From the NCBI GenBank assembly GCA_030622125.1, contig JAUXGM010000122.1, forward strand, positions 1-6,753: DNA of 6,753 nucleotides, given 5' to 3'. Position numbers and translations under genes: made by a program. Each line of letters opens with the position of its first letter. Position 1 is the stretch's first letter. This document shows, one piece after another, positions 1 to 4,950 of this stretch. The notes beneath the pieces were generated by a model. It ran no database searches. It was not told the DNA's origin and saw only the letters and a list, made by a program, of their open reading frames with translations. Source of the DNA: a bacterium. GTDB taxonomy: Bacteria; AUK180.

Positions 1-137
1 TGTCCCGGACTCTTCCTTAGATAACGATAGACCACCCGAAAACAGTATAGACAAGGGAAATAGAATTACTGTGTCCCGGACTCTTCCTTAGATAACGATA
101 GACCACCCGAGAACAGTATTGCCAAAGGAAATAGATT
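1..137. repeat. Two tandem copies of a ~66-bp direct repeat, 71-bp period
   Basis: Copy 1 covers 1-66 and copy 2 covers 72-137. The first 39 bases of each (1-39 and 72-110) are identical. Over the 66 aligned positions I count 5 mismatches (copy 1 positions 40, 49, 51, 55 and 65), about 92% identity, and similarity fades after 66/137. The window opens exactly on the first base of a copy, so the array may continue to the left. The part after the 39-base core is also conserved between copies, so this is a tandem repeat rather than a repeat-spacer array. A minus-strand reading frame of 85 codons runs across the repeat and the hairpins beside it, but it looks like translated repeat DNA and is not called as a gene. 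Confidence 0.85.
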
Positions 138-192
138 CAAAGGTTCAGAAGAAAATACGCCGAAAACAGAAAAACAATAGCATCGACGGCAA

Positions 193-233
193 GTGGGGCA
201 TCCCTTTTCGCAAAGCGAAAAAGAGTGTCCCAT
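193..233. repeat. Stem-loop 1 of intergenic hairpin cluster
   Basis: Arms 193-211 and 215-233 face each other across an AAA loop (212-214). Nineteen opposed positions give 14 Watson-Crick pairs. Read as plus-strand RNA there are also three G-U wobbles, leaving two C-A mismatches. The inner seven pairs, TTTTCGC against GCGAAAA, are perfect. Read on the minus strand the two C-A positions become G-U and the three wobbles become A-C mismatches, so the plus-sense fold is slightly better. Neither side has a T-tract, so it is not a conventional terminator. Confidence 0.8.
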
Positions 234-237
234 GTTA

Positions 238-297
238 CCAAGGAAATCCAGTTGCCTGTCTGCGTGCAACGCACAGGCAGGTAATCTCGTTCCTTGG
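238..297. repeat. Stem-loop 2 of intergenic hairpin cluster (long, two-part stem)
   Basis: The outer stem is a perfect 8 bp: CCAAGGAA (238-245) with TTCCTTGG (290-297). After an asymmetric internal loop (246-251 against 285-289) comes an inner stem of 252-262 with 274-284, eleven consecutive pairs including two G-U wobbles. Three more pairs (263-265 with 269-271) follow past a two-base bulge at 272-273, closing on a three-base loop at 266-268. This is the longest fold in the window and is very unlikely to be chance in DNA this AT-rich. Confidence 0.85.
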
Positions 298-303
298 AGT
301 TTC

Positions 304-319
304 CCCCGTTGATACGGGG
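304..319. repeat. Stem-loop 3 of intergenic hairpin cluster
   Basis: A perfect 6-bp GC-rich stem, CCCCGT (304-309) with ACGGGG (314-319), closes a four-base loop TGAT (310-313). It begins 6 bases after stem-loop 2 ends. No T-run follows in either direction, so it is not scored as a terminator. Confidence 0.8.
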
Positions 320-324
320 TCATT

Positions 325-520: not shown

Positions 521-1684
521 TTACATTTTTGATTGTTTTATAAAAATAGTGTCAACCTGGCACTTAATTTCCATATTATTTAGTCCAACTACAAGATACT
601 CGGTATTCATTCCCTCCACTTTCACATTTTCACTTTTATAATTTTTTTTACCTCTGAAATCTTTTAATGCTTCTTTTATGTATTTTAAGCCGTCAATCGA
701 GGAAAATAGGCATTTCCCATCCTTTTCAACAAAGATGAAATTATTAAGGTTTTTTGCTTTTATCTCGTAATTATCAGTAATTATTATGGAATTTTTGATA
801 TTTTTACAATCAATATTTCCTTCTATTACATTCCCGTTTTTATTCGCTTTCAAACGAAAAAGTGCCTCCCAATTTCCGACATCATCCCATATAAAATCAC
901 TTTTCAGCATAACAATATTTTTTGATTTTTCCATAATAATATAATCAATAGAATTAGCGGTTAAATTTTCAAAAAAGTTCTTTAATTTAATTTTCCTTTT
1001 TATATATTTTGATATAAGCTCATAATCGCCGGCAACAATATTCTTTATCTCACTTAGCAAATTATCAATATCAAAAGTGAAAATTCCTGAATTCCAAAAA
1101 TATCCGCCCTCTTTGTAAAATATTTTTGCTTTTTCATAATTCGGCTTTTCCACAAAGTTGACATTACCGTAATAGTTTATATCATTAAAATTATATGCGG
1201 TTTCCGGGTGCAAATATCCGTAATTGGTTTCAATTCTTGTTGGAACTATACCGAAGGTGATGATCTTCCCTTTGTTTTCTGCAATTTCAAACGCCTTTCG
1301 GCAAATATTAAGAAAATGTTCTTCATCCCCGATAATATGATCCGCAGCCACCATTATTACCGTGCCGCTTATCCCTCTTTGTTTTAAAGTTGCCAGAAAA
1401 AGTGCCATTGCAGGAAATGTATTTCTTTTAATGGGCTCTGTAATAATATTTCCAGGGGATAATTTAGGGAGATATTTATGTGTCAAGTTAAAAAATCGTT
1501 TATTGGTGGAAACAAAAATGTTCTCTTGCGGTACTAATTTATTCATCCTGTCAAAGGTTTTCTCCATCATGGTATTGTTTCCAAAAAGAGACAAGAATTG
1601 CTTCGGAAAATCAGAAGTGGAGTAGGGCCAGAACCTCGCACCTTCACCGCCTGCCATGATCAAAACAAATCTTTCATTTTTCAT
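521..1684 (-). CDS. manC: Mannose-1-phosphate guanylyltransferase (GDP-mannose synthesis)
   Basis: This cytoplasmic enzyme should form GDP-mannose from mannose 1-phosphate and GTP for polysaccharide or glycan synthesis. The 387-residue product starts with the nucleotidyltransferase signature: GGEGARFWPYS at 12-22 and the catalytic-type lysine K28 in PKQF. Other family blocks follow: EPIKRNTFPA (83-92), AADH with the metal-ligand-type aspartate D115, PTRIETNYGY (148-157), VEKP (178-181), WNSGIF (197-202), SIDYIIMEKS (245-254) and WDDVGNW (266-272). It matches the short one-domain enzymes. The C-terminal phosphomannose isomerase domain of long ManC proteins is absent. N154 stands where glycine is common. 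The ATG at 1684 gives the expected short lead to the signature and overlaps the kinase gene by 11 bases. A GGGG stretch 12 bases upstream is a poor ribosome site, so translational coupling is likely. Use of another sugar phosphate cannot be excluded. Confidence 0.9.
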   Translation of the reverse strand: MKNERFVLIMAGGEGARFWPYSTSDFPKQFLSLFGNNTMMEKTFDRMNKLVPQENIFVSTNKRFFNLTHKYLPKLSPGNIITEPIKRNTFPAMALFLATLKQRGISGTVIMVAADHIIGDEEHFLNICRKAFEIAENKGKIITFGIVPTRIETNYGYLHPETAYNFNDINYYGNVNFVEKPNYEKAKIFYKEGGYFWNSGIFTFDIDNLLSEIKNIVAGDYELISKYIKRKIKLKNFFENLTANSIDYIIMEKSKNIVMLKSDFIWDDVGNWEALFRLKANKNGNVIEGNIDCKNIKNSIIITDNYEIKAKNLNNFIFVEKDGKCLFSSIDGLKYIKEALKDFRGKKNYKSENVKVEGMNTEYLVVGLNNMEIKCQVDTIFIKQSKM

Positions 1685-3254
1685 ATATTTTTATTGCCCC
1701 TTTGGGACAGATATTTTCACATAGTTTATCTTTTATACAGGATTTTTCATTATAGATATTGATCTCACCTTTTTCCCTTTTAAAAATATCAAATGGGCAA
1801 ATACTTACACATTTATTACAAAGAATACATTTTGACATGTCCAATGAAACAGGATATTTCTCTATAATTTTTTGCTTCTCTTTTTTTAAATAGTAAACGG
1901 CAAAAGAATTGGTAACCTTTCCCTTATTAATGGGTTGGTCGCGAGAGATGATTACAATATTATTAGGTTTCAATTTGAACTTATTTTTTAATATGGGTAA
2001 TATTTTTGAATCGGGGATCATCTGTATTTTGCTGACAAAAAGTGGAAATGTGTTCCAATAAAGTCTTACCCTTCTGAATGTTTTTTTATTGTCCGTCAGG
2101 GTTACTATTTTTGCCCTGGGTCTGTATTTTGAAACCAATAAAGAAGTAAGTCCGCTTCGGGAAATGTTTGCAATGATCTTTGAATCGTTTTCTTCACTGT
2201 TAAGATACATAGATTTTGCAATAACCGCTGTCTGGGGAAAAATATTGTTGCAAATGGAAATATTTTTATCCTTTTTGATCTTTGTATAGTATTTTTCATT
2301 CTCAATAATTGCTCTTTCCAAATATTTTAAGGTTCTTAAAGGATATTTTCCGATTGAAGTTTCAGAGGTTAACATTATTACATCAACCTTTTCTTCAATC
2401 ATCATTGTAATATCGGACATTTCGGCGCGCAATGGTGTGGGATTTTCAATCATGGAATCCAAGACCTGAGTGGCAACAATGGAAATTTTTCCGTGTTCAT
2501 TAGCGAATTCAACGAGTTTTTTCTGAATAATAGGGACTTTAACAAGAGACATTTCAATACCGAGATCACCTCGTGCTACAAGCATACCGTCACTGTTTAG
2601 AATTATCTTTTTATAATTTTTTACACCGCCAACGGTTTCAATCTTTGCAATAACGGGAATGTTCACTTTTAAAGAATGAAGAAAACTTTTTAACTCTTTT
2701 AAACCCTTTACATCATTTACAAAAGAGAGAAAAAAGTAATCAATTCCTGTTTTAACTGCTATTTTGATTTTTTCTTTGTCTATTTCACTGAGAGGAGAAA
2801 GTTTAATATGAGTGTGCGGAAATGATATTGCTTTTCTTTCCAAAAGAATATGTTTGTTAAGAAATTTTATGATAGATTCATCTTTATTCTTTTTTATGAT
2901 CTTTGCTTTTAACTTTGCATCATCAAAGAGCAAGTCGTGATTGAGCTTCAATGAATCAAAAACCTCGGGAAAATTGAGATTTGTTCTTTTTAATGTGAAA
3001 ATATCGCCTTTCTTTATCTCTAATTTACCTCCGGATAGATTAATAATTCTTATTTTAGGTCCGGAAATATCACCTATAATGGGAATATTGACATCGATTT
3101 TTCTGATAAGTTCAATATTTTTTTGAACATCTTTTGATAGTATATGTGAGAAATTCAATCTGACGGCATCACTCTCCGCAATAGCCCGTTTCAACAATTT
3201 TTTTGTTCGTGTTAAAGCGGGACCCAAAGTTATTATTATTTTTGTTCTTTTCAT
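1674..3254 (-). CDS. pyk: Pyruvate kinase fused to a C-terminal two-cluster ferredoxin domain
   Basis: The kinase part should convert phosphoenolpyruvate and ADP to pyruvate and ATP in the cytoplasm. In the 526-residue product the A domain (about 1-70 and 150-335) has RLNFSH (32-37), D62 of DISGPKIR, K204 and E206 of the KIE motif, ARGDLG with D230, and T262 of ATQ. The B domain spans about 70-150 and the C domain about 336-460, including a SGLTSLLVSKYRPR segment. All active-site blocks look intact. K67 replaces the glutamate of potassium-dependent enzymes. Residues 471-526 are an added ferredoxin module: C476, C479, C482, C486, then C506, D509, C512, C516, where D509 takes the place of a cysteine. 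Usual kinases of this type have about 470-480 residues without this tail. The ATG start aligns with E. coli PykF. The promoter lies immediately upstream with no ribosome site. The 3' end overlaps manC. Confidence 0.93.
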   Translation of the reverse strand: MKRTKIIITLGPALTRTKKLLKRAIAESDAVRLNFSHILSKDVQKNIELIRKIDVNIPIIGDISGPKIRIINLSGGKLEIKKGDIFTLKRTNLNFPEVFDSLKLNHDLLFDDAKLKAKIIKKNKDESIIKFLNKHILLERKAISFPHTHIKLSPLSEIDKEKIKIAVKTGIDYFFLSFVNDVKGLKELKSFLHSLKVNIPVIAKIETVGGVKNYKKIILNSDGMLVARGDLGIEMSLVKVPIIQKKLVEFANEHGKISIVATQVLDSMIENPTPLRAEMSDITMMIEEKVDVIMLTSETSIGKYPLRTLKYLERAIIENEKYYTKIKKDKNISICNNIFPQTAVIAKSMYLNSEENDSKIIANISRSGLTSLLVSKYRPRAKIVTLTDNKKTFRRVRLYWNTFPLFVSKIQMIPDSKILPILKNKFKLKPNNIVIISRDQPINKGKVTNSFAVYYLKKEKQKIIEKYPVSLDMSKCILCNKCVSICPFDIFKREKGEINIYNEKSCIKDKLCENICPKGAIKIYEK

Positions 3255-3321: not shown

Positions 3322-4950
3322 TCAAAGTTTTTTACGAATTTTTTGTAAAAGTTCATCAATATCTGTTTCTTTGTTTTTTATATTGTTCTTTTCATAAATC
3401 CCTTTGGATCTTATTGCATTATCATAAGCTTTTTGATAATCATTATTGTTATAATGGATATTCGCCAGTTCAAAAAAAGAAAGTCCCAACTTATCATTCA
3501 TATTATTTTTATTTGCAACACTAATTGCTTTATTAAGATAATCTATGCTTTTATCAACGGATTTTTTCATATCAAAGTTTATTTGTGCCAATAAATGTAA
3601 TATGGAAATATTTTCTTTATCAAAACCTGATCTTTCTGCAAAAATCAATGCCTTTTTTGCGTAGTAAAATGCTTTTTTCAAATCTTCTTTTGCAATATAT
3701 AATCGGGCAAATTGAGAATAAATTTCAAAAAGATTCATGTTATCTTCCACTTTTAAAAAAATCTTTTCCGCATTTAATAAATATTCTTTTGCTTTATTAA
3801 ATTTATTTATTAATCTATATATTCTTCCTGTGTTTAAATAGTTTTCACCGTTCCACAAATTATCTTCAATCTTTATCGAAATATTAAGAGCTCTTTTATA
3901 AAAATCCAATGCCTTTTTAAAATCACCTTTGCTTTCATAGATAATACCAATATTCTCAAGTGACTCTCCTATACTGCGTTTATAATCGATTTGTTTAGAT
4001 ATTTGTAAATTCTTTTTATAATATTTTAACGCCTTATCCAGATCACCTTTTATTCCGTATATCATACCGATGTTTCCAAGTGCAATGCCAATTCCTTTTA
4101 AATATCCAATTTTTTGTGAAATATTAAGATATTTTTTATAGTAGTATAGGGCATTATCATAATCGTTTTTATCGTAGTAAACATTTCCGATATTACAGGC
4201 GGATACTGCATTTCCCTCCTCATTCCCTATTTCTTGAGATATTTTCATATATTTTTTTAAACAAGGAAGTGCTTTATCCAATTCTTTCTTAGAGCGATAT
4301 ACTAAACCAATGTTTCCTGATGCTATTGCAATACCCTGCTTATCACCAATTTTTTTTGAAGAATTTAGATATTTATTAAAATAAAATAAGGCTCTATCAT
4401 AATCACTTTTGTTCCAATAAATTCCGCCTATGCTGTTATAAGATTCATTTATACTTTTTAGATCATCAAGTTCTTCGCTGATTTTTAATGATTTTTTAAA
4501 ATATTCCAATGCTTTTCTGATATTTCCCCTCTGTTGGTGAATAAAAGCAATATTATTGTCCGCCTTACTTATTCCTTTTTTGTAATTTATTCTTTTAGAC
4601 ATAGCTAAAAATCTTTCAAATAATTCCAATGCTTCACTATATTTGCTTTTTATTAATAGTACACTACCTATTTGATTAAGGGTATCCGCATATATTTCAG
4701 AATCCTTTAACTTGTTAATTTTTCGTAAAACCTTTTTCGCAATCTCTAACGATCTATCATAATTGCTTTTTCGTTGAGAATATAAGAATGACAAAGCAAG
4801 TTTTATTTTAAGAATCATTTTTTCATTCACATATTTTTCCGCATTTATATAATCTTTTATGGCAGCATCATATTCACCTGTAAGTTCGTATACATCCGCC
4901 CTGCCGATAAAAGCTCGAATCAATAAATTGTTATAATCTTTCTTTTTCAC
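3322..4950 (-). CDS. Tetratricopeptide-repeat (TPR) protein, about 13 units
   Basis: The 542-residue product is almost wholly TPR helices, so it probably acts as a cytoplasmic protein-binding scaffold. Its partner is unknown. There is no signal peptide, membrane segment or catalytic motif. The small or hydrophobic anchor of helix A falls at residues 18, 55, 95, 135, 175, 215, 255, 295, 335, 375, 415, 455 and 496. The spacing is exactly 40 residues from 55 to 455, longer than the 34 of classical TPRs and typical of TPR_12/LGN-type units. A consensus unit reads NIGxxYxxKxDxDKALxYYKK. It starts at GTG (4950). No in-frame start exists between it and the upstream in-frame stop at 4995-4993. An extended -10 box lies nine bases before it and there is no ribosome site. 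Similar arrays often sit behind a kinase, cyclase or ATPase domain. Here none is attached. Confidence 0.88.
   Translation of the reverse strand: MKKKDYNNLLIRAFIGRADVYELTGEYDAAIKDYINAEKYVNEKMILKIKLALSFLYSQRKSNYDRSLEIAKKVLRKINKLKDSEIYADTLNQIGSVLLIKSKYSEALELFERFLAMSKRINYKKGISKADNNIAFIHQQRGNIRKALEYFKKSLKISEELDDLKSINESYNSIGGIYWNKSDYDRALFYFNKYLNSSKKIGDKQGIAIASGNIGLVYRSKKELDKALPCLKKYMKISQEIGNEEGNAVSACNIGNVYYDKNDYDNALYYYKKYLNISQKIGYLKGIGIALGNIGMIYGIKGDLDKALKYYKKNLQISKQIDYKRSIGESLENIGIIYESKGDFKKALDFYKRALNISIKIEDNLWNGENYLNTGRIYRLINKFNKAKEYLLNAEKIFLKVEDNMNLFEIYSQFARLYIAKEDLKKAFYYAKKALIFAERSGFDKENISILHLLAQINFDMKKSVDKSIDYLNKAISVANKNNMNDKLGLSFFELANIHYNNNDYQKAYDNAIRSKGIYEKNNIKNKETDIDELLQKIRKKL

What the first reader, a model, noticed from the sequence alone, without database searches (positions are those of the whole stretch)
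1674..3254. Pyruvate kinase carrying a C-terminal ferredoxin module
Seen: a full three-domain pyruvate kinase with intact active-site blocks runs without a stop into a 56-residue module with two CxxCxxCxxxCP-like iron-sulphur motifs (C476-C486 and C506-C516). Known: ordinary pyruvate kinases end with the C domain, or in Bacillus carry a phosphohistidine-type extra domain. I do not know a described ferredoxin fusion. Inferred: the tail may sense redox state and tune glycolytic flux. Alternatively it may dock the enzyme to pyruvate:ferredoxin oxidoreductase, coupling pyruvate production to its ferredoxin-dependent oxidation.
Basis: partly seen in the sequence, partly recalled or inferred. Interest (0 to 1): 0.82.

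Follow-up and report, generated by a model that had tools for sequence, protein, structure and literature searches.

The report
Pyruvate kinase fused to a ferredoxin
The only pyruvate kinase found in this uncultured bacterium (the enzyme of the last step of glycolysis) carries a built-in iron-sulphur ferredoxin tail; all seven related genomes examined share it and one distant lineage has a similar fusion, so glycolysis there may be wired directly to the cell's redox state.

Summary
The fusion is real. A 526-residue minus-strand gene (window 3254-1674) encodes a complete pyruvate kinase (PK) that runs without a stop into a two-motif ferredoxin module. It is the only PK found in its genome. The same fusion is present in all seven genomes held from its class (candidate phylum AUK180 / Ca. 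Uvuciota, by inference), at 38-77% identity, so it is not an assembly or frameshift artefact. In a sample of 386 bacterial genomes, 274 with a PK hit, only one other genome (G110) showed a PK-ferredoxin fusion. The PK tree favours a separate origin for it, though one origin is not formally excluded (p-AU 0.093).

One correction matters. The second motif is not CxxCxxCxxxCP: its second cysteine is Asp or Glu in all eight fusions. This resembles Pyrococcus-type ferredoxins, whose cluster converts between [3Fe-4S] and [4Fe-4S].

Docking to pyruvate:ferredoxin oxidoreductase gets no genomic support: that enzyme is encoded elsewhere with its own complete delta-ferredoxin subunit. Best guess: the tail is a redox- or iron-responsive regulatory domain on PK, analogous in position to the extra C-terminal domain of Bacillus PK. 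That function is inferred, not shown. I found no published description.

The parts
1674..3254 (-). Whole gene: pyruvate kinase-ferredoxin fusion, 526 aa plus stop
   Evidence: ORF; families
2331..3254 (-). PK barrel with inserted B domain (residues 1-308)
   Evidence: PF00224, 229.8 bits; catalytic residues intact
1896..2222 (-). PK C (alpha/beta, allosteric) domain, residues 345-453
   Evidence: PF02887, 55.3 bits, cut-off 28
1845..1889 (-). Short variable linker, residues 456-470
   Evidence: Alignment A1, poorly conserved, with insertions in the second family
1689..1844 (-). Ferredoxin module, residues 471-522
   Evidence: Fer4 and Fer4_7 above cut-off, both match 8 of 8 fusions; ferredoxin fold in a tail-only AF2 model
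1797..1829 (-). Motif 1, C476-x2-C479-x2-C482-x3-C486-P
   Evidence: Cys invariant in all 8 fusions
1707..1739 (-). Motif 2, C506-x2-D509-x2-C512-x3-C516-P (Asp/Glu in place of the second Cys)
   Evidence: D in 7, E in 1 of 8 fusions
521..1684 (-). Downstream neighbour: mannose-1-phosphate guanylyltransferase-like gene overlapping the fusion's 3' end by 11 bp (context, not part of the fusion)
   Evidence: same neighbour in G001-G004 by position and start of sequence

Best explanation
This is a genuine, conserved pyruvate kinase with a covalently attached two-motif ferredoxin domain. Shown: the fusion, an intact kinase active site, invariant cluster ligands, and conservation across the class. 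Inferred from known ferredoxin anatomy: cluster I bound by C476/C479/C482 plus C516, and cluster II by C506/D509/C512 plus C486, the latter an Asp-ligated cluster that could interconvert between [3Fe-4S] and [4Fe-4S]. Inferred function: the tail sits where Bacillus PK carries its extra C-terminal domain and acts as a redox- or iron-responsive regulatory domain. It would adjust kinase activity to the ferredoxin pool, so that PEP-to-pyruvate flux slows when reduced ferredoxin (or loss of the labile iron) signals that PFOR and pyruvate phosphate dikinase should run towards PEP.
For: Fusion in 7 of 7 genomes of the class, full length, as a clade with 99% support. Only PK in the window's genome. 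All seven Cys and the D/E invariant across 8 fusions in two lineages. Tail under purifying selection in the close pair L004/L005 (dN/dS 0.13). Tail-only AF2 model (best of five, pLDDT 81) matches ferredoxins, with 1xer, 2vkr and Pyrococcus ferredoxin among the top hits. Asp-ligated P. furiosus ferredoxin has an altered reduction potential and is isolated as [3Fe-4S] in air and [4Fe-4S] without oxygen (PMC6237146). PK and a PPDK gene (TIGR01828, 1378 bits) coexist with PFOR in the window's genome, so the PEP/pyruvate node needs directional control. Precedent: the extra C-terminal domain of B. subtilis PK is autoinhibitory during gluconeogenesis (PMC11834443).
Against: No experiment shows cluster binding, redox sensitivity or any effect on kinase activity. 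The full-length AF2 model leaves the tail at low confidence, so no docking surface on the kinase is predicted. The linker is short and variable, which fits a tethered carrier as well as a regulator. Asp-type motifs also occur in free-standing ferredoxins.
Confidence: 0.4

Rival explanations
1. Tethered electron carrier or docking module: the tail exchanges electrons with PFOR or another ferredoxin-dependent enzyme and keeps the kinase next to it, so pyruvate is made where it is oxidised.
For: PFOR-type alpha subunits are in all seven genomes; ferredoxin modules commonly serve as docking or relay parts (established knowledge); short tether.
Against: PFOR has its own complete PorD delta subunit; PK is not beside PFOR in any locus examined; PK itself has no redox chemistry to supply.
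Confidence: 0.22
2. Structural iron-sulphur domain: the clusters only stabilise the enzyme or its oligomer, with no signalling.
For: Fixed position and invariant ligands would also follow from a structural role; the source is plausibly hydrothermal sediment (PMC11382960).
Against: The other PKs examined do without it; an Asp ligand makes the cluster more labile in P. furiosus ferredoxin, an odd choice for a staple (PMC6237146).
Confidence: 0.2
3. Iron or oxidant sensor specifically: cluster II loses its Asp-bound iron ([4Fe-4S] to [3Fe-4S]) under oxidant or iron limitation, which switches the kinase; electron potential as such is not sensed.
For: D/E in place of the second Cys in 8 of 8 fusions, against Cys in the other Fer4 motifs of the AUK180 loci scanned.
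Against: No functional data; a free-standing ferredoxin with the same substitution occurs (L153).
Confidence: 0.13
4. Assembly or frameshift artefact joining two genes.
For: The window is a whole 6.7-kb contig of a fragmented assembly.
Against: Uninterrupted fusion in seven genomes of the class, plus G110.
Confidence: 0.01

Closest known systems
Pyruvate kinase with extra C-terminal (PEP-utiliser-like) domain, Bacillus/Geobacillus/Staphylococcus type
   Same: Three-domain PK with an extra domain attached directly after the C domain; in B. subtilis that domain is regulatory (PMC11834443).
   Different: Here the extra domain is a ferredoxin module with cluster ligands, not the PEP-utiliser-like domain; regulation not shown.
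K+-independent (Lys117) pyruvate kinases
   Same: K67 aligns with rabbit position 117 and is Lys in all eight fusions; Lys117 enzymes are K+-independent (PMC5501398 abstract).
   Different: Position 113 is Ile in the seven AUK180 sequences rather than the usual Leu.
Asp-ligated ferredoxins (Pyrococcus furiosus Fd; also Sulfolobus/Acidianus 3Fe-4S/4Fe-4S ferredoxins)
   Same: C-x2-D-x2-C-x3-C-P motif; the tail model's best PDB matches include these.
   Different: Fused to a kinase; the Asp is in the second motif of a two-motif module, with a full Cys set in the first.
PorD, the delta subunit of four-subunit PFOR
   Same: Small two-motif ferredoxin module.
   Different: PorD has all eight Cys and is a separate gene in the PFOR operon of the same genome.

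Membership tests
Pyruvate kinase | Curated family score and intact catalytic residues | tested here: met
   TIGR01064 352 bits against cut-off 306; PF00224 and PF02887 above cut-off; residues; PK fold
Pyruvate kinase | Kinase activity | not testable with these tools
   Needs purified protein
4Fe-4S ferredoxin domain (Fer4/Fer4_7) | Curated domain score | tested here: met
   Fer4 43.0 bits (cut-off 21.1), Fer4_7 31.2 (cut-off 27); both match all 8 fusions at E <= 0.001
Canonical 2[4Fe-4S] clostridial-type ferredoxin | Eight Cys in two CxxCxxCxxxCP motifs | tested here: not met
   Seven Cys; second motif has D509 in place of Cys
Asp-ligated (P. furiosus-type) ferredoxin | CxxDxxC...CP motif | tested here: met
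   D in 7, E in 1 of 8 fusions
Asp-ligated (P. furiosus-type) ferredoxin | Convertible [3Fe-4S]/[4Fe-4S] cluster with altered potential | not testable with these tools
   Needs EPR and electrochemistry
PK with PEP-utiliser-like extra C-terminal domain | PEP-utiliser-like domain after the C domain | tested here: not met
   No such domain in Pfam/NCBIfam scans; the tail is Fer4
PFOR delta subunit (replacement for a missing PorD) | Genome lacks a separate PorD | tested here: not met
   PorD present in the PFOR operon, L090:929-1216

The most novel reading that the evidence does not exclude
A pyruvate kinase whose activity is gated directly by the state of an attached Asp-ligated iron-sulphur module, linking glycolytic exit to ferredoxin potential or iron status without a separate regulator, invented at least twice in bacteria.
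Probability: 0.35. Interest if true: 0.82.

Novelty: new variant of a known kind. Interest (0 to 1): 0.62.

Why it matters
Pyruvate kinase is one of the best-studied enzymes, and its regulation is thought of in terms of small-molecule effectors and, in some bacteria, an extra C-terminal domain. A ferredoxin welded to the sole pyruvate kinase, and kept across a whole candidate class, would make the redox-glycolysis link a property of one protein, directly testable with a truncation and a single Asp-to-Cys change. It also gives a natural case for asking how electron-carrier status controls the PEP/pyruvate node in bacteria that hold both PK and pyruvate phosphate dikinase.

Tried and rejected
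Artefact: rejected by conservation in seven genomes. Missing PFOR delta subunit replaced by the PK tail: rejected, PorD is present. Single origin with G110: not favoured (two changes on the tree, 0% of bootstrap trees with one), but the AU test does not reject it (p 0.093). An early sign that the G110 tail was the closest relative of the AUK180 tail (44 against 35 bits) did not hold once more free-standing ferredoxins were scored: L155 (56.8) and L154 (50.6) beat it. Uniqueness of the Asp ligand: not so, L153 has the same second-motif Asp and L156 a first-motif Asp. Two viral-contig searches found no PK-ferredoxin fusion (the second, with the tail alone, found no relatives at all), and none was seen among the ten best plasmid records. 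Phyla of G193, G144, G033 and G030 gave no further fusion among listed matches. Literature searches found no description of the fusion. Full-length AF2 gave no usable position for the tail.

Full report
Observation. The gene lies on the minus strand, 3254 down to 1674; the plus-strand frame is full of stops. The 526-residue product has a PK barrel (1-308), a PK C domain (345-453) and a Fer4 module (471-522), each above Pfam's cut-off, and passes NCBI's pyruvate kinase equivalog. Its closest solved relatives by sequence are pyruvate kinases, and the AF2 model of the kinase part matches PK structures. The second motif, however, is C506-x2-D509-x2-C512-x3-C516-P: the second cysteine is replaced.

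Conservation. The window's genome (2.08 Mb in 192 contigs, 96% complete) holds one PK. The full-length fusion is in all six other genomes held from its class, at 77, 47, 47, 45, 39 and 38% identity. One of these contigs is JAGGYO010000140.1, 'bacterium isolate AUK180' (8,161 bases in both listings). A review lists GTDB phylum AUK180 as Candidatus Uvuciota, from deep-sea and marine hydrothermal sediments (PMC11382960). That the window belongs to this phylum is therefore an inference from same-family kinship. All seven Cys are invariant and the D509 column is D or E in every sequence. In the close pair L004/L005 the tail evolves under constraint (dN/dS 0.13, kinase part 0.12); the window/L003 pair is saturated at silent sites and gives no ratio for the tail.

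Rarity. A profile of the seven fusions was run over 386 genomes spread over about 260 families. 274 had a PK hit at E <= 1e-20, and only one further match covered the ferredoxin part, in G110 (L038, 549 aa), the only genome held from its phylum. The output lists only the stronger matches, so a weakly scoring fusion could have been missed. Four other phyla, all small in this collection (27 genomes in all), added none among listed matches.

Origin. On an 81-row PK tree the seven AUK180 proteins form one clade (99% SH-aLRT) and G110 sits elsewhere, so the label needs two changes (this is the quick tree, the careful one did not finish). A 40-row careful tree agrees (0% of bootstrap trees with one origin), but the AU test does not reject one clade (p 0.093). 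Two origins are therefore likely, not proven. Tail similarity does not help: some free-standing ferredoxins from other phyla match the AUK180 tail profile as well as or better than G110's tail.

Anatomy of the tail. Under the established ligand scheme of two-motif ferredoxins (established knowledge), cluster I uses C476, C479, C482 and C516, and cluster II uses C506, D509, C512 and C486. P. furiosus ferredoxin has the same Asp substitution, an altered potential, and is isolated as [3Fe-4S] in air but [4Fe-4S] without oxygen (PMC6237146). A tail-only AF2 model (only the best of five is good, pLDDT 81) gives a ferredoxin-like fold; its first two PDB matches are the ferredoxin 1xer (Sulfolobus, from memory) and the [3Fe-4S]/[4Fe-4S] Acidianus ferredoxin 2vkr, with Foldseek E-values near 0.002 and probability 1.00. 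In the full-length model the tail is at low confidence, so its position on the kinase is unknown.

Kinase part. The catalytic residues checked are conserved (the rabbit numbering used to name them is from established knowledge). K67 corresponds to rabbit position 117, where Lys marks K+-independent enzymes (PMC5501398), so K+-independence is predicted. In the window's family the SGE triplet reads TSE; the Glu is kept.

Context. In the window, PK-Fer is followed, with an 11-bp overlap, by a mannose-1-phosphate guanylyltransferase-like gene, as in G001-G004; in G005 and G006 a different gene follows. PFOR-type genes occur in all seven genomes. In the window's genome the PFOR operon (gamma, delta, alpha, beta) is on another contig with its own eight-Cys PorD. 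A pyruvate phosphate dikinase gene follows the indolepyruvate oxidoreductase genes in the window's genome, and PPDK_N hits occur in six of seven genomes. Phosphofructokinase is present in all seven. The cell can thus in principle move carbon both ways between PEP and pyruvate.

Mechanism. Shown: fusion, conserved active site, conserved ligands, conservation across the class. Inferred: two clusters, one Asp-ligated. Inferred further, with lower confidence: regulation of the kinase by cluster state. The precedent for an extra C-terminal domain controlling PK is B. subtilis, where it is autoinhibitory during gluconeogenesis (PMC11834443), though that domain is unrelated. The carrier/docking and structural readings remain open.

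Novelty. No paper found describes a PK-ferredoxin fusion, within the limits of an open-access library and without a protein-architecture database. Both parts are known kinds; the combination, its fixation across a class and the Asp/Glu ligand make it a new variant of a known kind.

Noticed in passing
L098:1-3144: IMG/VR contig whose first ORF runs in frame from a pyruvate kinase (about 404 aa) into a phage portal-like protein (by eye, not scanned); the contig begins inside the kinase, so a chimeric assembly join is likely.
   Followed up: partly
window 521-1684: Mannose-1-phosphate guanylyltransferase-like gene starts inside the fusion's last codons (11-bp overlap); a gene of the same kind follows the fusion in four other genomes.
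   Followed up: partly
L092:3-7111: Pyruvate phosphate dikinase lies behind indolepyruvate:ferredoxin oxidoreductase genes; in five other AUK180 genomes the PPDK_N and POR_N hits also fall close together on one contig.
   Followed up: partly
window 66-323 and L091:2202-2480: Both minus-strand ORFs contain the peptide SGGLSLSKEESGT, suggesting a dispersed repeat in this genome.
   Followed up: no
L153 (G016:C1:824450-824950): Free-standing ferredoxin-like ORF with the same Asp substitution in its second motif (CIGDGICKIICP), a possible type of source for such tails.
   Followed up: partly
window 3322-4950: 542-aa protein made largely of TPR repeats between the fusion and an ABC-F gene.
   Followed up: no
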